Positions 1-21,295 of a DNA stretch of 21,891 nt are shown here, piece after piece. Each line of letters opens with the position of its first letter. The first letter of the stretch is position 1. The position numbers were made by a program, and so were the translations under genes. The notes under the pieces are model-generated. The model searched no databases. It saw only the letters and a program-made list of their open reading frames with translations, and was not told the DNA's origin. The stretch comes from a virus. The stretch is from the IMG/VR virus record IMGVR_UViG_3300049024_000044, positions 1 to 21,891 of that record. One strand, written 5' to 3'.

Positions 1-1518
1 CTGAATGAGAACGCCGATCTTGTTGCCGCCAGGAACGGCGCCGGTCCAGCGCATCGAGCTGTCGCGGAAAGTGCCGCGCGCGGTTTCGTCGGCGACCAGA
101 CAATTCTCATAATCGATGAAGGTCTCGTCCTCGATCGTCCAGTCTTCGGCGTGGAGCATGTAATGGCCGACCGGGGCGGTCCACGCCCTCTTGTCGGACT
201 TCCACCACTGGTTGCCGGTGATCTTGATGACCTTCGAGCGAATTCCTGCGGCGGCGATCAGGATGTCGCTCTGGATCGTCGAGGCCTGGATATTCTCGCC
301 GCGATTGTTCGCGATGGTGATCCGCTCGCAAGCCTGGCCCGAAACGTCGTAGCCCGACATGATCAGGAAATTTCGGACGTTGCGGACAAAATTGTGATGG
401 ACGAAGGTATCGCGATAGGTGCCAAGAACCAGGTGGCCGGCGTTCGTTAGACCCGGCCCCTCATCCAGTTCAGGATTGTCGACCAGCGAGCAGCTGGCGA
501 CCTCGAAGTCGAACGAGTTATAGATGCTGCCGCCGCCGCCGGTATAGCCGAGGTAGAAGCCATCGCAGAGGTCCGCGCCATGCAAGTTGATCAGCTTGCC
601 GGACGAATGGTGCGCCTGGACCATGTAGCTGTTGCGGGCGTGGCCGTTCCTGAATCGACCGCGGCGTATGTCGACGTCGCAGCGATAGAAGCTGAACGCG
701 GAGATCGCGAAGCCGCCGAGATCGAAGTGGAGCCGATCGATCTCGGCCTGCCCCAGGTCGTCGTCGCTCGTCCCGGCGAACTTGAAGATAGGGTTGCCGG
801 CATTGCCGGGCACATTGAGCTGGGTCGGCGCCTCGATCGCGATGATCGTCGCTCCGTTGCCATCGAGCCGAAGCCCAGTGTCGCCGAGCGCGAAAGAAAT
901 GTCTGTGTCGGTACCTACGCCGTAGCGCGCGCCTTGACCGAGCTGCAGGCCGAGTCCGTAGGTTATTGCGTCGTCTAACAGCTCGGCCAGTGCCGTGCTG
1001 TTATCGACCCCATCATCGTTCACGAGATTGCTCACCGCCGGGGTGAGCGGCAGATCGCGCAGCAGGGCGCGCGTCGTTGTGGGGATCGTGAACGTGCCGA
1101 GCGGCTTGTGCGCTACCAGAGACGTGCCCGCGGTAGGCGAACGCAGAGAGGTGATAAAGCTGGCTACAGATGTCCAGAGGCCCCCGTCCGCATCATCGTC
1201 GGACCCGATCAGAGTCGCGCCATTCGGGGCGCTGAGGGCGGCGATGATTTCGTCCGGCAATTCTGGGCCGGCACCGACCACCACCCGACGATCGCGAAGG
1301 ATCAGCTTGCCGCCGTAATAGTAATGGAGCTCGTAGATGCCGTCGGCGGCATTGAAGTAGAACCCGCCATATGCGTCGCTGGAAACGGGATTGGCGAGAT
1401 CCCCGCCCCCATCCTCTTCCAGCTCGGCGAGCGCGCCGGCGATGGTGTAGACATAGACCGAGACGCCGGGCAGGGGGGCCTCGAGCTGGTTGCGGATCGT
1501 ATCGGCATAGCGCGTCAT
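1..1518 (-). CDS. Tailspike/tail fibre with beta-helix, 3' end outside window
   Basis: An uninterrupted frame of 506 codons starts at the ATG at 1516-1518 and is still open at base 1, so the C-terminus lies outside the window. The ATG overlaps the TGA of the preceding gene (ATGA), which fixes the start. Residues about 1-80 (from MTRYADTIRNQLEAPLPGVS) look like a small N-terminal virion-attachment or beta-sandwich domain, with NPVSSDAYGGFYF and YELHYYYGG segments. From about residue 165 the sequence turns into short beta-strand repeats rich in Gly, Asn and Asp (GLRLDGNGATII, ITIANNRGENIQ, VIKITGNQWW), as in right-handed parallel beta-helix tailspikes that bind or cleave surface polysaccharide. 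It is the last of three overlapping genes that begin with a P22-tailspike-like head-binding protein, so it is probably the receptor-binding part. Enzymatic activity cannot be judged. All shorter frames in this stretch are shadows. Confidence 0.85.
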   Translation of the reverse strand, partial: MTRYADTIRNQLEAPLPGVSVYVYTIAGALAELEEDGGGDLANPVSSDAYGGFYFNAADGIYELHYYYGGKLILRDRRVVVGAGPELPDEIIAALSAPNGATLIGSDDDADGGLWTSVASFITSLRSPTAGTSLVAHKPLGTFTIPTTTRALLRDLPLTPAVSNLVNDDGVDNSTALAELLDDAITYGLGLQLGQGARYGVGTDTDISFALGDTGLRLDGNGATIIAIEAPTQLNVPGNAGNPIFKFAGTSDDDLGQAEIDRLHFDLGGFAISAFSFYRCDVDIRRGRFRNGHARNSYMVQAHHSSGKLINLHGADLCDGFYLGYTGGGGSIYNSFDFEVASCSLVDNPELDEGPGLTNAGHLVLGTYRDTFVHHNFVRNVRNFLIMSGYDVSGQACERITIANNRGENIQASTIQSDILIAAAGIRSKVIKITGNQWWKSDKRAWTAPVGHYMLHAEDWTIEDETFIDYENCLVADETARGTFRDSSMRWTGAVPGGNKIGVLIQ

Positions 1519-1973
1519 GGCGCGATCGCGAGATTTCGTGCCGAGCGCGCAATCACATTGGTCTCGGCGGTTGCGCCTGTCGCGTCAGTGACCGTGCATT
1601 TGAATTCCGCTTCAGCCGTGGTTCCAGGGTCGACAGCTTCTGCCGTGAAGGCGGTCGCAGCCGCCTCATCATTCACGATCGCCCAGTCTCCGGGATTGGC
1701 GTCGGAGCGTTCCCAGAGATATTCGAACGGCGCAACGCCGCCAGTGATCGTGACGGATGCCGCGGCGGTGGAGATGTCGACAGGTGAACTGCTGTTGCCG
1801 AAGCCGGTGTGAGACGTTGGCGCAGCTGCGGCCGTCATCGACGCGAAGAAGCTCTTGAGGCCTGTCGCCGTGCGAACCGCCCCGCTGGCGATCGGCTGCG
1901 GCACCTCGTCGACGTCTATGAACTGGAGCGAAGCCAGTTCGGCGAACGCGGTCTCGCCGCGGACGCCGCTCAC
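1515..1973 (-). CDS. Ig-like domain protein of the tailspike module
   Basis: This 152-residue protein starts at a GTG that overlaps the stop of the upstream tailspike-adaptor gene (GTGA) and ends with an ATGA overlap into the beta-helix spike, so the three genes look translationally coupled. Residues 1-45 contain FAELASLQFIDVDEVPQPIASG, which resembles short phage tail-fibre connector sequences. Residues about 60-150 alternate Thr/Ala/Val-rich strands (VDISTAAASVTITGG, APFEYLWERS, EFKCTVTDATGATAETNVI), the pattern of a single bacterial Ig-like or PKD-like beta-sandwich. Such domains commonly decorate virion surfaces and bind carbohydrate weakly. It is probably a virion component that links or accompanies the tailspike. 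The family assignment is by sequence pattern only. Confidence 0.7.
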   Translation of the reverse strand: MSGVRGETAFAELASLQFIDVDEVPQPIASGAVRTATGLKSFFASMTAAAAPTSHTGFGNSSSPVDISTAAASVTITGGVAPFEYLWERSDANPGDWAIVNDEAAATAFTAEAVDPGTTAEAEFKCTVTDATGATAETNVIARSARNLAIAP

Positions 1974-2575
1974 GTCGCGGTCCTCAGCAGGATGTCGCCG
2001 GGGAGCGAGGTCGGGTCAGCGTCAGCCGGACCCCGGACGAAAACCCGGCCGGAGGTGAAGTCAGCATCAGTGTGGTAGAGATGCGTACCGGCGCCTTGGC
2101 GGACGATATTACCAGTCATCGTGCCGCCGACGAGGGCAAGTGCGGCGGGGAGGCCGAGCGCAGCCTGGAGCGCGGCCTGATTCGCCAAGGTGAGAAGCGC
2201 GCGGCCGTAAGCGGTGGTCGCGAGGGCGGCGATGGCGGTCAGGTCACTGTCGAGAGGCTGGAACGATGGCCCCGTCTCCAGCGCGGCCGCGGCGCTCGGT
2301 GCATAGGCGACCAGCGTACCGGCCTTGTCCGTGACCCGGATCGAATAGTCGTCCTCCTCCATGAAGACGAGCACCGCGTTCATTCCGCTGACGATCATCC
2401 CGCCGAGCGTGCGCAGCGGCTGCGTGATCGGCTGGGTCAGATCGTCGTCGAGAAAGAGGTTGATAGGATCGGTCTCGGGGTCGGCATTTGCCTCGCCGAC
2501 GTAGACGAACCCCGCGTCGAGCAGTGCCCCGCGGCTATCAATGAAAAGCGGGAACGGGTTGACGAGACGCTGCAT
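1970..2575 (-). CDS. P22 tailspike-like head-binding (adaptor) protein
   Basis: This 201-residue protein resembles the N-terminal head-binding domain of P22 tailspike gp9. Shared features are NPFPLFIDSRG near the start, FVYVGEANADPETDPINLF (residues about 23-41), an ITQPLRTLGGMIVSG segment (about 50-64), then a beta-rich stretch ending LVAYAP (about 92). In P22 this domain, about 110 residues long, attaches the spike to the gp4/gp10/portal hub. Here a coiled or linker region (about 100-145) and a short tail follow, and the polypeptide stops, with the fibre body encoded by downstream genes. The ATG is preceded by AAGG six bases upstream. A late-promoter box lies 59 bases upstream. Homology to the head-binding fold is quite convincing; that it works as a separate anchor is an inference. 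Confidence 0.8.
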   Translation of the reverse strand: MQRLVNPFPLFIDSRGALLDAGFVYVGEANADPETDPINLFLDDDLTQPITQPLRTLGGMIVSGMNAVLVFMEEDDYSIRVTDKAGTLVAYAPSAAAALETGPSFQPLDSDLTAIAALATTAYGRALLTLANQAALQAALGLPAALALVGGTMTGNIVRQGAGTHLYHTDADFTSGRVFVRGPADADPTSLPGDILLRTAT

Positions 2576-2634
2576 TCGCCGCCTTGCGCTGAGGGTGCGC
2601 GGGCGAGTTTACGGGCAGCGGCGCAGAGGCGCAG

Positions 2635-2646
2635 TTGAACCTTATC
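2635..2646 (-). promoter_or_regulatory. Late-promoter box GATAAGGTTCAA, copy upstream of tailspike genes
   Basis: Exact copy of a 12-base motif found at four other gene junctions, all in the sense of late transcription. After a 23-base GC-rich gap comes TAAACT (2606-2611), a candidate -10 element, with no -35-like hexamer between. The predicted start near 2599 would give a leader of about 24 bases before the tailspike-adaptor ATG at 2575. The box also overlaps the far upstream region of the divergent plus-strand gene. Confidence 0.6.
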
Positions 2647-2670
2647 GGGAGGCGGAGTAGCTTGCCGGCT

Positions 2671-3072
2671 ATGAATCGGGAGCAGCGGGCGGCCGCCATT
2701 CGGCAGCGATTGCGTGACCAACAGCTCATTGACCTTGAAGCGGAGGGTCTTGGGCCTCCGTGCACATCGTGTATTCACGCGCCCATTAATGATTCAGGCA
2801 AGGGCCCGTGCACTCATGTCGCCTTCTGGCATTGGCGTTACGATCCGATCAATGGGAGGCGCAAAGGCGGGCACCGAGGAACGACCACTATGCAGGCGCG
2901 GGCCGCGGACGGAATGTGCGGTCCCGAAGGCTTACTCTTCGAGCCTTACACCGTTTTCAAGCGCAGCGCTCGGTGGCTCGCAAGGGCCAATCTGCTCACG
3001 CTGTATGCGCTAGCGCTCGGCACTCTGGTCGGCGCTTTAGTGATTGCGGGAACGCTACTCGGCCGCTGGTAG
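2671..3072 (+). CDS. Cys-rich membrane-anchored protein, lone plus-strand gene
   Basis: This is the only convincing plus-strand gene. From the ATG at 2671 it encodes 133 residues. An in-frame TTG at 2662 has GGAG four bases upstream and is a possible alternative start. An N-terminal basic/Gln-rich helix (REQRAAAIRQRLRDQQ) is followed by a Cys/His cluster (CTSCIH, then CTHV, then MCGPEG), which could be a small metal-binding knuckle. The C-terminus has one hydrophobic helix (LLTLYALALGTLVGALVIAGTLL), probably a tail anchor in the inner membrane. Its GC content looks lower than its flanks. It converges with the ejection-protein gene with 14 bases between stops. The position, between the last ejection gene and the tailspike, is that of the P22 immI/sieA module, so a moron role (lysogenic conversion or superinfection exclusion) is plausible but unproven. 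Confidence 0.75.
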   Translation: MNREQRAAAIRQRLRDQQLIDLEAEGLGPPCTSCIHAPINDSGKGPCTHVAFWHWRYDPINGRRKGGHRGTTTMQARAADGMCGPEGLLFEPYTVFKRSARWLARANLLTLYALALGTLVGALVIAGTLLGRW

Positions 3073-3086
3073 CCGGCTTCCCTGGC

Positions 3087-5990
3087 CTACTGCTCATCGG
3101 AGCCGACTGCGGGCGCAGTCGACGGAGTGCCGACGAGCGTCGTCACGCGCCCCGTAGCGCGCCCCGGTCGGCCAGTCGTCTGGGAACGCAGCCGTCTCTC
3201 CTCTTGCCGGAACTGCGCGATGAGGCGGCGGACGCGGGCCATGTCGGTTTCGCCAAGGAGCGATGCCACGCGCTGCTGAGCCCGGGTGGCTTGCCGGCCG
3301 CTGAGCGCCCGGGCAGCGAGGCGGAGCGCCGAAATGATCGGGATGCCGGATGTCGCCAGATCTCCAACTCCTATTGCGACGGCCAGCGAGGAATCGTCAG
3401 CGACGTTGGCCGCAGTCGGAGAACCGAGACGCGCCCTGCGGAAGGTCTGGAAACCTTCCTGCTCAGCCTCAAGCGTGCTGACGAAGCGATCGAACTGGCG
3501 ACGGTCGCCGAACAGGCGTGCCAGCATCGCCCTCTTTTTCCCCGTACCGGCGAGATGGGTCACGATGTTCGCAGTGTCGCCGCGGCTGTCAACCTGTTCT
3601 GCCATCGCCCTGCGAGCGCCGAGGCGTGCCATTTCAGTCTCAAAGGGCGTCATCCCGCGCATCTGAGCCTCGATGTCATCGGCATTCATGCCGATTAGAC
3701 GCCGACCGCGGTTCATCGCCTCAATGCCGCTCACCGGGCCGCCCCATGCCGCGCGGGCGGCAGCATAATCGGGATTTGCCTCGTCAAACTGACGCAGGAA
3801 CGAACGAAGCGTGTTGTTAACGGCGCGGCCCTCTGTGTCGAGATTCAGACGCCCTGTCGTGCTGTCGCGATAGGCTTCGACAACATCGTCCAGGCCGCGC
3901 TTGATGTAATCGAGCGTCTGCCACGTCGGCTGCGCCTCGACAACCGGAGCCATCTCCCCAGCTAGAGCCGTTCCTGGTGCGGCGCGCGCGAACAGGAGGT
4001 CGCCATTTTCGTCGAGCGCAAGCCCGATCTCGTCTGGATTACGTCCCTCCTCCGCGGCGATGCGACGCGCGCGTTGTAGCGCCCCCCGCATGGACGGACG
4101 CTGGAGAATGGGACGTACGCGGCCAATAAACTCCGGCGCTCCTTCAGCGGCATATGCTGCATCATAAAGCGGTGCGGCGTTGGTCTGAGCTTGCGTCATC
4201 AGAGCGTCGGCGATTTCATGCGGATTGGATACCGGACCAAGGTCCCGCTCGATTGCCGCCGTCAGACGGGTCCCGAGCTGGTTCTGACGCTCATCGAGCG
4301 CATTGACAGCCGCCGTTCTTCCTTCGCCGGGCTGCCTTGCCGCTGCCGACATGGCGCCACGCGCGTTCTCCCCGCTGTCCGCCAGCATATATGGCACGCC
4401 AGTTTCTTCGGCACGGTCGGCCTGCCGAGACAATGCGGCAGCATCGTTCCCGTCAGCCCGGATGGCGCGATAGACAATCCGACGCGCCAAGTCCGGGGAG
4501 CCACGCAAGCCGCGCCATAGCGCTCGACCCGCTTGGGCGCCATAAGGAAGCGTCCCGCCCGCAGCAGCGCCGAAAACACCTTCTACTGCGAGCTGAGCGG
4601 CGCGATCGACAATGCCGCTGTCACCGCTGCCAGCTCCGTGCGCTGCCCCGTATGCGCCGCCCTCCATCCCGAGACGGACCGCAGAGGCGCGGCGAGCGGC
4701 GGCGAGGGCGGCTTCACGCGTTCCGCCAGCGCGCAACGTCTGAACTGCTGCCGTGCGAGCATCGGCAGCAACGCCAGACGGAATGACTAGTGCTCCCGCG
4801 ACTTGCCCCACCGTCCGAGCCACTGGGTTATGTTCGGCGTCGAACTGGTCGATGCCCCTCTGACGATAGAGGTTTTCCTGATAGGTGCCGCCGTTGAATA
4901 CCGTGTCACCTACAGCGCCGATTTCATCAGCGAACCCAGCGGAGAGAACATCAGCTGCGCCGCGGACCCCGGCGTCAATATCCTGCGTCCCGACCGAGAG
5001 CGTGGGGCCACCTGGAATGGGGGTGATGCCAACGCGATAATCTGTCTGGCGTTCCGGTGGTGTGCCGCGTTCCGTAGGCTGTCGGGCGCCGCTTCCGCGC
5101 ACATACCCTGCCCCAGCGCCTCTGGCACGAATGATCTCATCCGCATTGCCTATGTCGCCAAGCCCGTTTTGGTGAGCGAAGGTGCGGAGCTGAGCGGCAG
5201 TCGCGCGCGGGTGTGCCGCCATCCACGCGTCGTAAAGCTGCTCCTGCTGCGGCGTCCAGGGGTCTGCCGGCTGAGGCGGTATGGGTTCGTCATTGAAAAC
5301 GAGATCAGTTCCGGCCGGTGCCCTGCCATTCCGTGCGGGCGGTTGCTGTCCTTCCTCCCCCTCGAACTGCGTCAGCCACTGTTCAAACTGCGTGCGATCC
5401 TCGGGCCGCATCGAACGCCCAGCGGCATTGACCAACCCTTCCAGTGCCCGCCGACGAGCACTGCGCTTCTGGGCGAGAACTTCCGGCCCATCGCCGGGCA
5501 TGGGGAAATAAATGCGGCGCTGCCGCTCCAGTTCTTCTTCAGGGATCGCGGCCCCCGAATCTTGGCGCAGCGTTGCGGCGATAAACTCGTCTTGCGCGCT
5601 GTCGGCTACCTGCCTCTCGGGACTGTTGCCAATTGAGCTCGGCAGTTGATTGAGCAAGCTGGGCGCATAATCGTGAATTGTCTCGCCGACATAAGAGCGA
5701 GGCCCAACGCCGGTTCCTTCATAAGATCGATTGGCGCCGAAAGCGCGCATGAAGAACGATGCGGCGCGCCGCTCCGCCTCGGCCGCTTGCGCCGCCGTCC
5801 CGGCCGCCGCGTCCCTGGCGCGCTGCTCGTTTTCCAGCGTCAGCCGGCGCAGGTTCGCAGCGTCAATCTCGGCCTGGGTCTGCGTCTGCGGCGAAGGCTG
5901 CCTAGTCGGCGGCACGATCTGCACGAGCGGCGCGCCCTGCCCCTGAGGGCCAGACACTACAGGGTCGTTATCCCAGGGCTGCGCCTGCAT
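3087..5990 (-). CDS. Large ejection (internal virion) protein, gp16-like position
   Basis: A 967-residue protein whose ATG overlaps the stop of the preceding gene (TGATG). Residues 1-90 are Gln/Ala/Arg-rich and partly coiled coil (EIDAANLRRLTLENEQRARDA). A Pro/Gln-rich low-complexity region follows (about 200-330). Residues about 340-500 hold Gly/Ala-rich amphipathic segments (VRGAADVLSAGFADEIGAVG, VGQVAGALVIPSG) of the kind found in ejected pore-forming proteins. The C-terminal half is helical, including DYIKRGLDDVVEAYRDSTTG and a FLRQFDEANPDYAAARAAWGG motif common in phage internal virion or DNA-transfer proteins. In P22 the three ejection proteins gp7, gp20 and gp16 occupy this place, and gp16 (609 residues) is last. 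Assignment rests on length, composition and gene order; no enzymatic motif was recognised. Confidence 0.75.
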   Translation of the reverse strand: MQAQPWDNDPVVSGPQGQGAPLVQIVPPTRQPSPQTQTQAEIDAANLRRLTLENEQRARDAAAGTAAQAAEAERRAASFFMRAFGANRSYEGTGVGPRSYVGETIHDYAPSLLNQLPSSIGNSPERQVADSAQDEFIAATLRQDSGAAIPEEELERQRRIYFPMPGDGPEVLAQKRSARRRALEGLVNAAGRSMRPEDRTQFEQWLTQFEGEEGQQPPARNGRAPAGTDLVFNDEPIPPQPADPWTPQQEQLYDAWMAAHPRATAAQLRTFAHQNGLGDIGNADEIIRARGAGAGYVRGSGARQPTERGTPPERQTDYRVGITPIPGGPTLSVGTQDIDAGVRGAADVLSAGFADEIGAVGDTVFNGGTYQENLYRQRGIDQFDAEHNPVARTVGQVAGALVIPSGVAADARTAAVQTLRAGGTREAALAAARRASAVRLGMEGGAYGAAHGAGSGDSGIVDRAAQLAVEGVFGAAAGGTLPYGAQAGRALWRGLRGSPDLARRIVYRAIRADGNDAAALSRQADRAEETGVPYMLADSGENARGAMSAAARQPGEGRTAAVNALDERQNQLGTRLTAAIERDLGPVSNPHEIADALMTQAQTNAAPLYDAAYAAEGAPEFIGRVRPILQRPSMRGALQRARRIAAEEGRNPDEIGLALDENGDLLFARAAPGTALAGEMAPVVEAQPTWQTLDYIKRGLDDVVEAYRDSTTGRLNLDTEGRAVNNTLRSFLRQFDEANPDYAAARAAWGGPVSGIEAMNRGRRLIGMNADDIEAQMRGMTPFETEMARLGARRAMAEQVDSRGDTANIVTHLAGTGKKRAMLARLFGDRRQFDRFVSTLEAEQEGFQTFRRARLGSPTAANVADDSSLAVAIGVGDLATSGIPIISALRLAARALSGRQATRAQQRVASLLGETDMARVRRLIAQFRQEERRLRSQTTGRPGRATGRVTTLVGTPSTAPAVGSDEQ

Positions 5991-19880: not shown

Positions 19881-20086
19881 CACGGCCTCCCCGTCGAAAT
19901 CTTCCGGTCCAGGAAATGCTTCGTTGAGCCGTCATCCTCGACTTTGCGGCCGACGAAATACGGCAGGCCGGAATCGCAGACGAAGGCGCTGCGGTTGAGG
20001 CTGTCGCGAAGCTGCTCAAGCATTTCGACCGTCACCTTGCCGGGGCGCGGCGTGCTGACAAAATCGTCTAGCGGGTTACGAGTCAT
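19880..20086 (-). CDS. Unknown 68-residue protein
   Basis: The ATG (20084-20086) overlaps the end of the replication-protein gene by 11 bases and has GGAAGG five bases upstream. The sequence reads TRNPLDDFVSTPRPGKVTVEMLEQLRDSL, then AFVCDSGLPYFVGRKVEDDGSTKHFLDRKI. The N-terminal part is helical and the second half beta-rich, with a single Cys. No motif is recognised. Its placement among replication-region genes suggests an early small protein, possibly regulatory. Confidence 0.6.
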   Translation of the reverse strand: MTRNPLDDFVSTPRPGKVTVEMLEQLRDSLNRSAFVCDSGLPYFVGRKVEDDGSTKHFLDRKISTGRP

Positions 20087-21071
20087 AATTGCCTTCCAAG
20101 ACCTTCTGGAAATTGCCTTTTTTCATCAGCCAGTCGAAGGTGAGCGGCGTTCGGCCGTTGTCACCTCGTAGGAACGGCGAGTCCCGGCACTTGGCGAAAA
20201 CCGTCTGGAAGTCGTCCAAGCCGCGCTGGGTGATCCGGCCACGAGCAAGCTGCCGGCGCTCAGCGGTGAAGTCTCTCGGCACCGGGCGGCCGATTGAGGC
20301 AGCCAGCTTCCGGTAACTTTCAAAAACATGTTCGGGCCGAAGCGAGGGCTCATCGCTAGATGGGCTATCGTCGTTAGACGATTCTACTTCTTCCTTTGGA
20401 GGTAGAGGTGGAGGGGCAGTCGTTCGGCAGGCGTTCGGCAGGCGTTCGAACAAGTCTTTACAGACACTTAGCCGATAATCTGTGTCGTCTGCGCTCTTGG
20501 AAGAGTTGCAAGAAACGCATAGCGGTTGGAGATTATTTAGCGCATCGGACCCGCCACGATAAATCGGGAGGATGTGATCCTTAACCAATTCGCACCCGCT
20601 GGCGTGGCACTTGACACATTGCGAGCCCGTCAGCCGAACTAGCTCTTCCCATTCCGCCGCGGTGTGTCTTCCCTTGGCTCGCGCCTCTGTAAGCCGGGCC
20701 GCGCGCTTCCTCGCTGCGGAAAGTCCATCCTCTTCTGGGCTGCTTTCCCACTTGCTGGCGGCCTTATCACGCTGCGCTTGGCGACGGCTCTCGACGTAGT
20801 TGCGCTCTTTGGTTAAACGGGCCTGTTTCCATGCCCCATTCTCAAGCGTCCAGAAGGCCATCACGGTCGGCTTGAGCTTGCGCCATTTGGCCGCAGTCGT
20901 GCCTAGCATCCGGGCAAGGCGGGCATCGTCGTCTGGGAGGCAGCATCCTTCGATGCGCCAAGCGATCATGATGAGCTGGAGATAGGCCCCGTGTTCCTCA
21001 AGACTGAGGTGGCGAGTATCGGCCAGGTAGGCATCGCCGAAGAACGGGATGGCGGGGACGGCGCTGCTCAC
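20076..21071 (-). CDS. DUF1376-type replication protein carrying an HNH endonuclease domain
   Basis: The start chosen is the GTG at 21069-21071, overlapping the upstream stop (GTGA) with GGAG upstream. An ATG 18 bases earlier is an alternative. The protein has 331 residues. Residues about 6-95 (PAIPFFGDAYLADTRHLSLEEHGAYLQL, ARMLGTTAAKWRKLKPTVM) are a DUF1376/YdaU-type domain found in phage replication initiators. Residues about 125-200 are an HNH nuclease: C152-x2-C155, DH165-166, GGSDALNNLQPLC185VSCN189 and K192. A low-complexity Pro/Ser/Glu linker (215-243) follows. The C-terminal 90 residues (VFESYRKLAASIGRPVP to WLMKKGNFQKVLEGNY) match the tail of phage replisome organisers. The HNH part seems inserted between the two halves and is visibly poorer in GC than its surroundings. 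Confidence 0.8.
   Translation of the reverse strand: MSSAVPAIPFFGDAYLADTRHLSLEEHGAYLQLIMIAWRIEGCCLPDDDARLARMLGTTAAKWRKLKPTVMAFWTLENGAWKQARLTKERNYVESRRQAQRDKAASKWESSPEEDGLSAARKRAARLTEARAKGRHTAAEWEELVRLTGSQCVKCHASGCELVKDHILPIYRGGSDALNNLQPLCVSCNSSKSADDTDYRLSVCKDLFERLPNACRTTAPPPLPPKEEVESSNDDSPSSDEPSLRPEHVFESYRKLAASIGRPVPRDFTAERRQLARGRITQRGLDDFQTVFAKCRDSPFLRGDNGRTPLTFDWLMKKGNFQKVLEGNYDS
20422..20448. repeat. 11-base tandem repeat in the linker of the HNH replication protein
   Basis: GTTCGGCAGGC is repeated twice directly (20422-20432, 20433-20443) and followed by a partial third unit GTTCG. Eleven is not a multiple of three, so gain or loss of a unit would shift the frame. It lies just after the HNH domain. 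Confidence 0.6.
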
Positions 21072-21295
21072 CAGCCCCACTCCGCGCAAATCTTGTCGGC
21101 AAGGGCGAGCTCGGCTTCGCGGGTGTCGCTGAGGATGCGCTCGCGTGCCGTTGGGCCAGGAAGGACGGTCCCTGCTCCGATCGCCCAGAGATAGGACTTG
21201 CTGAGCCCGAAACGCTTGTGCGCGACGTTCATTCCGCCGGGGAGGCAGACAGTGGCGTGAACGAGCGCGCGGGCTTGAGCGTGTGAGGTCGCCAT
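21068..21295 (-). CDS. Unknown 75-residue protein
   Basis: The ATG at 21293-21295 overlaps the stop of the nuclease gene (TGATG) and has AGAGG upstream. A six-codon longer frame is possible but lies inside the nuclease gene. The sequence has a helical first part (ATSHAQARALVHATVCLPGGMNVAHKRFGLSKSYLWAIGAG), where AHKRFGLSKSYLWAIGAG looks like a loose helix-turn-helix. It ends with an acidic helix (RERILSDTREAELALADKICAEW). It may be a small DNA-binding or replication accessory protein; the family is not recognised. Confidence 0.6.
   Translation of the reverse strand: MATSHAQARALVHATVCLPGGMNVAHKRFGLSKSYLWAIGAGTVLPGPTARERILSDTREAELALADKICAEWGW

What the first reader, a model, noticed from the sequence alone, without database searches (positions are those of the whole stretch)
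2671..3072. Lone plus-strand membrane protein at the P22 immI/sieA position
The only gene against the direction of the late operon lies between the last ejection gene and the tailspike. P22 keeps its immunity I region and the superinfection-exclusion gene sieA at that place. The protein is unrelated in sequence to SieA as far as I can see, but it has a C-terminal membrane helix and a Cys/His cluster. It converges with the upstream gene at only 14 bases and appears lower in GC. This suggests an independently expressed moron, possibly a new exclusion or conversion factor.
Basis: partly seen in the sequence, partly recalled or inferred. Interest (0 to 1): 0.65.

Follow-up and report, generated by a model that had tools for sequence, protein, structure and literature searches.

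The report
New membrane protein in phage sieA slot
A small, previously undescribed four-cysteine protein, usually with a membrane tail, sits with its own promoter-like signal at the exact spot where Salmonella phage P22 keeps its gene for keeping rival phages out, in two different families of temperate phages, so it is probably a new kind of phage-exclusion gene that can be tested directly.

Summary
Gene X (2671-3072, +) lies between the last ejection-protein gene (3087-5990, -) and the tailspike head-binding gene (1970-2575, -) of a P22-like phage fragment. This reproduces the geometry of P22 sieA: opposite strand, converging with gene 16 (14 bp apart here, 22 bp in P22). X has no match in Pfam, PHROGs, NCBIfam, PADLOC, PDB or annotated phages, and none to SieA itself. 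I found seven diverged relatives in the same slot and orientation. Two are in P22-like phages, where the slot is closed in 28 of 35 relatives. Five are in a second podovirus lineage with a different head-tail connector, where all five relatives have it. All eight keep four cysteines (CxxC...C...CGPE); seven of eight have one C-terminal membrane helix. All eight have TA 12-13 nt before the start codon and no Shine-Dalgarno match, five with an upstream TTG at promoter spacing, so a leaderless own promoter is likely. All five X-bearing records of 30 kb or more encode an integrase. Verdict: a new moron family in the known 'ant moron' slot, most likely a prophage-expressed inner-membrane exclusion factor that works like SieA without being SieA. 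The function is inferred, not shown.

The parts
2671..3072 (+). Gene X: 133-aa protein; N-terminal helix (3-24), four-cysteine domain (C31xxC34, C47, C83 of CGPE), one C-terminal membrane helix
   Evidence: seven relatives in the same slot
2635..2640 (+). Promoter -35-like TTGAAC
   Evidence: TTG 16-18 nt upstream of TA at -12/-13 in 5 of 8 family members vs 0.5% of background ORF starts; consensus inference
2658..2663 (+). Promoter -10-like TAGCTT, 7 nt before the ATG (leaderless start inferred)
   Evidence: TA at -12/-13 in 8 of 8 vs 7% background
2576..2670 (.). Divergent intergenic region between X and the head-binding tail gene (95 bp)
   Evidence: 28-83 bp in the relatives measured
3073..3086 (.). 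14-bp convergent gap between X and the ejection gene; overlap of 7-20 bp in six relatives, 0 bp in one
3087..5990 (-). Last ejection-protein gene (P22 gene 16 position), 967 aa, phrog_5880
   Evidence: homologue in X-bearing L100 44-52% identical
1970..2575 (-). Head-binding N-terminal tailspike protein, 59% identical to VSN-002, where the slot is closed

Best explanation
X is a prophage-expressed moron in the P22 'ant moron' slot. Its protein probably sits in the inner membrane by a C-terminal helix, with the four-cysteine, probably zinc-binding domain and the N-terminal helix in the cytoplasm. It is most likely a superinfection-exclusion factor that works like SieA: in a lysogen it blocks entry of DNA from related podoviruses at the inner membrane, where their ejection proteins arrive. 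Shown by computation: the gene, its position, orientation and insertion status, the family, the four cysteines, the membrane helix, the promoter-like signature, and presence in integrase-bearing phages. Inferred: zinc binding, topology, expression in the lysogen, the exclusion function and its target.
For: Same place, orientation and convergent spacing as P22 sieA; [quoted passage not shown] Eight diverged members in one slot in two podovirus lineages, closed in 28 of 35 P22-type relatives. Membrane helix in 7 of 8. Own promoter-like signature in 8 of 8. Integrase in all five X-bearing records of 30 kb or more. X relationships discordant with the adjacent ejection gene, as for an independently moving moron. 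Coding constraint.
Against: No sequence relation to SieA. One membrane segment instead of three or more, and no SieA motif. The L100 member has no membrane helix. No expression or infection data. The slot also holds non-exclusion genes in other phages (PMC2629481). Discordance with gp16 gives no sign of a matched X/gp16 pair. Soluble relatives occur elsewhere in phage genomes (P0005, L136, L141), so the cysteine domain alone is not specific to exclusion.
Confidence: 0.42

Rival explanations
1. A prophage-expressed moron with another role: lysogenic conversion, host physiology or anti-defence, anchored at the membrane but not acting on DNA entry.
For: Same moron evidence. Distant relatives of the cysteine domain lie in other phage contexts: near lysis genes, in a prophage accessory region and among head-tail genes.
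Against: Position is constant next to the ejection genes in two lineages, although the family could sit anywhere.
Confidence: 0.25
2. The transcript, not only the protein, matters: X mRNA runs into the 3' end of the ejection gene and acts as an antisense RNA or by transcriptional collision, excluding related phages or tuning tailspike synthesis, like STnc6030 of BTP1.
For: STnc6030 lies antisense to the same gene pair and excludes BTP1 (PMC7067206). X overlaps the ejection gene by 7-20 bp in 6 of 8 and no terminator-like site was found around it. The P22 moron affects tailspike level (PMC2629481).
Against: The protein is conserved at the amino-acid level with codon-position-3 divergence; STnc6030 has no ORF over 60 aa.
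Confidence: 0.13
3. A DNA- or RNA-binding regulator like Mnt/Arc of immI, the cysteine domain binding nucleic acid to control the divergent tailspike promoter or lysogeny.
For: Divergent 28-95 bp intergenic region. Mnt and Arc are encoded in the same slot of P22. The L100 member is soluble.
Against: Membrane helix in 7 of 8; no match to Arc/Mnt or any DNA-binding family.
Confidence: 0.1
4. A minor virion or late lytic protein that happens to be inverted.
For: It sits inside the late cluster and is present in 5 of 5 lineage-2 relatives.
Against: Opposite strand to late transcription, own promoter-like signal, absent in most P22-type relatives.
Confidence: 0.06

Closest known systems
P22 SieA (superinfection exclusion, inner membrane)
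   Same: Same slot, orientation and convergence with gene 16; own promoter; small membrane protein; temperate podovirus
   Different: No sequence similarity; one C-terminal helix instead of three or more; four-cysteine domain not reported for SieA; different phages and hosts; function untested
'ant moron' region of P22-like phages (Villafane et al. 2008, PMC2629481)
   Same: Variable, inserted, independently expressed gene between the gene 16 and gene 9 homologues, absent in many relatives
   Different: New gene family; also present in a second podovirus lineage outside the P22-like type; found in all five relatives there
STnc6030 antisense RNA of prophage BTP1 (PMC7067206)
   Same: Opposite strand at the ejection/tailspike junction
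   Different: X is a conserved protein gene; STnc6030 is a non-coding RNA
Small four-cysteine phage proteins (L136 protein, P0005, L141, L142)
   Same: CxxC...C...CG pattern, with AR..DG before the last cysteine in the nearer ones
   Different: Mostly stand-alone, other genomic positions; function also unknown

Membership tests
SieA | Located between gene 16 and gene 9 homologues, converging with gene 16 | tested here: met
SieA | Sequence homology to a SieA type | tested here: not met
   BLASTP and profile comparison against P22 SieA; no match in the phage collection; only type A compared directly
SieA | Three or more transmembrane segments | tested here: not met
   one segment in 7 members, none in L100
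SieA | Conserved motif FxRYPxEAxxFNK | tested here: not met
   best partial match 3 of 8 fixed positions
SieA | Necessary and sufficient for blocking DNA injection from a lysogen | not testable with these tools
   needs infection assays
Ant moron / moron | Inserted between late genes, absent in related phages | tested here: met
   closed in VSN-002 and 28 of 35 loci
Ant moron / moron | Own promoter | tested here: inconclusive
   strong sequence signature in 8 of 8, chosen after inspection; the stricter consensus scan found none
Ant moron / moron | Carried by temperate phages and expressed in the lysogen | tested here: inconclusive
   integrase in 5 of 5 X-bearing records of 30 kb or more; the window fragment itself is too short; expression not testable
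Zinc-binding domain | Four conserved metal-ligand residues | tested here: met
   four cysteines in all eight slot members; metal binding itself not testable
STnc6030-like antisense RNA | Non-coding transcript antisense to ejection and tailspike genes | tested here: not met
   conserved 108-141 aa coding frame; transcript ends unknown

The most novel reading that the evidence does not exclude
X defines a new class of superinfection exclusion: a membrane-tail-anchored four-cysteine (zinc) protein, made in lysogens from a leaderless promoter, that blocks the inner-membrane end of the ejection conduit and has settled in the same slot of two podovirus lineages.
Probability: 0.3. Interest if true: 0.7.

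Novelty: new variant of a known kind. Interest (0 to 1): 0.5.

Why it matters
[quoted passage not shown] A sequence-unrelated family in the same position, in phages related to a Sphingopyxis phage and in a second podovirus lineage, suggests that this junction is a general docking site for genes acting at DNA entry, and gives a compact test case. The own-promoter signature also gives a simple way to spot such genes from sequence.

Tried and rejected
Family libraries with X and its relatives: nothing above cut-off. Solved structures by sequence: nothing useful. Single-query scans for X in viral and genome contigs and annotated phages: nothing, so I found relatives through conserved neighbours and motif patterns. 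A broader motif pattern gave only chance frames besides known members and L136. Genome searches in Sphingomonadaceae gave only distant relatives, and the class-level search none. First AlphaFold model poor (pLDDT 60); the ten-row model is better (82, pTM 0.45) but has no significant fold match. Tested whether X goes with one gp16 type: no, X-less gp16s share the same segments and X and gp16 relationships conflict. Low GC as a sign of foreign origin rejected.

Full report
What is there. The window is a 21,891-base virus record carrying the late genes of a P22-like podovirus: portal and coat match the P22 models, and the closest isolate by the gp10/Hc3 protein is Sphingopyxis phage VSN-002 (56%). 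Gene X (2671-3072 +, 133 aa) lies between the 967-aa ejection gene (3087-5990 -) and the head-binding tail gene (1970-2575 -). X and the ejection gene converge at 14 bp; X and the tail gene diverge over 95 bp. The GC of X is not unusual.

Comparison of the slot. In VSN-002 the head-binding protein is 59% identical, yet the slot is only about 25 bp. I collected relatives with an alignment of the gp10-like protein and measured the gap before the tail gene in 35 loci: 28 have 80 bp or less. One of the others, L011, has an X relative (28% identity, E 4e-6) in the same slot and orientation, again with a C-terminal helix and the ending GKW (window: GRW). A search with both sequences gave L100 (38% over residues 5-98), again in the slot, but ending before any membrane helix.

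A second lineage. A DNA pattern for DG-x-CGPE-xx-LFE found L117, L119 and L122, and relatives of their neighbouring 834-894-aa protein added L148 and L150. These phages have an SU10-type adaptor and the phrog_3287 structural protein instead of the P22-type set, so they are a different podovirus lineage. All five distinct genomes carry X in the equivalent place: opposite strand, overlapping the end of the large ejection-position gene by 7-17 bp, next to a tail gene. That the 834-894-aa protein is an ejection protein is inferred from position and a weak match to the L100 ejection protein.

The protein. All eight slot members keep four cysteines, CxxC...C...C, the last in the motif CGPE preceded by R..DG or a close variant. 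Seven have one C-terminal hydrophobic helix. The residues before it are net positive in five of these seven, which in them favours a cytoplasmic domain with a short outside tail (inference). The ten-row AlphaFold model (pLDDT 82, pTM 0.45) shows an N-terminal helix 3-24, a mostly irregular cysteine region and a helix 95-131; fold searches gave nothing significant. Codon position 3 diverges most in all pairs examined, so the protein is under selection.

Promoter. In all eight, TA stands 12 or 13 nt before the start codon (background 7% of 6,055 ORF starts in the same loci), and in five a TTG lies 16-18 nt further upstream (background 0.5%); none has a Shine-Dalgarno-like match against 15% of background starts. 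The upstream regions are otherwise little alike, 18-51% identical without gaps. The pattern was noticed before it was tested, and the lineage-2 sequences are partly related, so the binomial values (under 1e-9) overstate the case. The plain consensus scan found no promoter. A leaderless own promoter is the best reading.

Lifestyle and inheritance. All five X-bearing records of 30 kb or more match the phage-integrase family. In lineage 2, the X of L122 is closest to L117 and L119 (57-59%) while its ejection gene is closest to L148 and L150 (56-59%), so X and the ejection gene have been exchanged independently.

Comparison with the known. In P22, sieA lies on the strand opposite to gene 16, 22 bp from its end, with its own promoter, followed by the immI genes and the tailspike. 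The literature calls this variable region the 'ant moron' (PMC2629481). [quoted passage not shown] The BTP1 antisense RNA STnc6030 at the same junction also excludes phage (PMC7067206). X is unrelated to SieA in sequence, has one helix instead of three or more and lacks the SieA motif. It is therefore not a SieA, but it sits where SieA sits and probably works at the same place.

Mechanism and confidence. That X is an independently expressed moron family I hold at about 0.85. That it is an exclusion factor acting on DNA entry is inference from position, anchoring and two precedents, about 0.42. The L100 member without a helix, and soluble relatives elsewhere in phage genomes, are the main facts that do not fit neatly.

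Noticed in passing
window 1-2575 (-): The tailspike is split into three consecutive genes (head-binding 1970-2575, Ig-like 1515-1973, a third tail protein, tailspike body by position, 1-1518 running off the edge); VSN-002 has a corresponding three-gene arrangement, its Ig-like gene similar to the window's.
   Followed up: partly
L098:1489-1809 (-): The genome behind L014, whose X slot is closed, has a soluble relative of the cysteine domain on the opposite strand beside its lysozyme-like gene.
   Followed up: partly
L142:1429-2001 (-) and L141:1285-1839 (+): Two Sphingomonadaceae genomes hold distant relatives: one with C-terminal hydrophobic segments in a probable prophage accessory region, one short cysteine protein among probable phage head-tail genes.
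   Followed up: partly
L136:1691-1897 (+): A stand-alone four-cysteine-type protein of about 69 aa in a 106-kb virus matches the X profile (E 7.6e-6 in the fetched loci), suggesting a wider unnamed phage domain.
   Followed up: partly
L018 and L019, gp10-like gene to head-binding tail gene: In these two relatives the tail gene comes within about 500 bp of the gp10-like gene, so the ejection genes must lie elsewhere or be missing.
   Followed up: no
window 20076-21089 (-): One ORF joins a DUF1376 match with an HNH endonuclease match at the edge of the late region.
   Followed up: no
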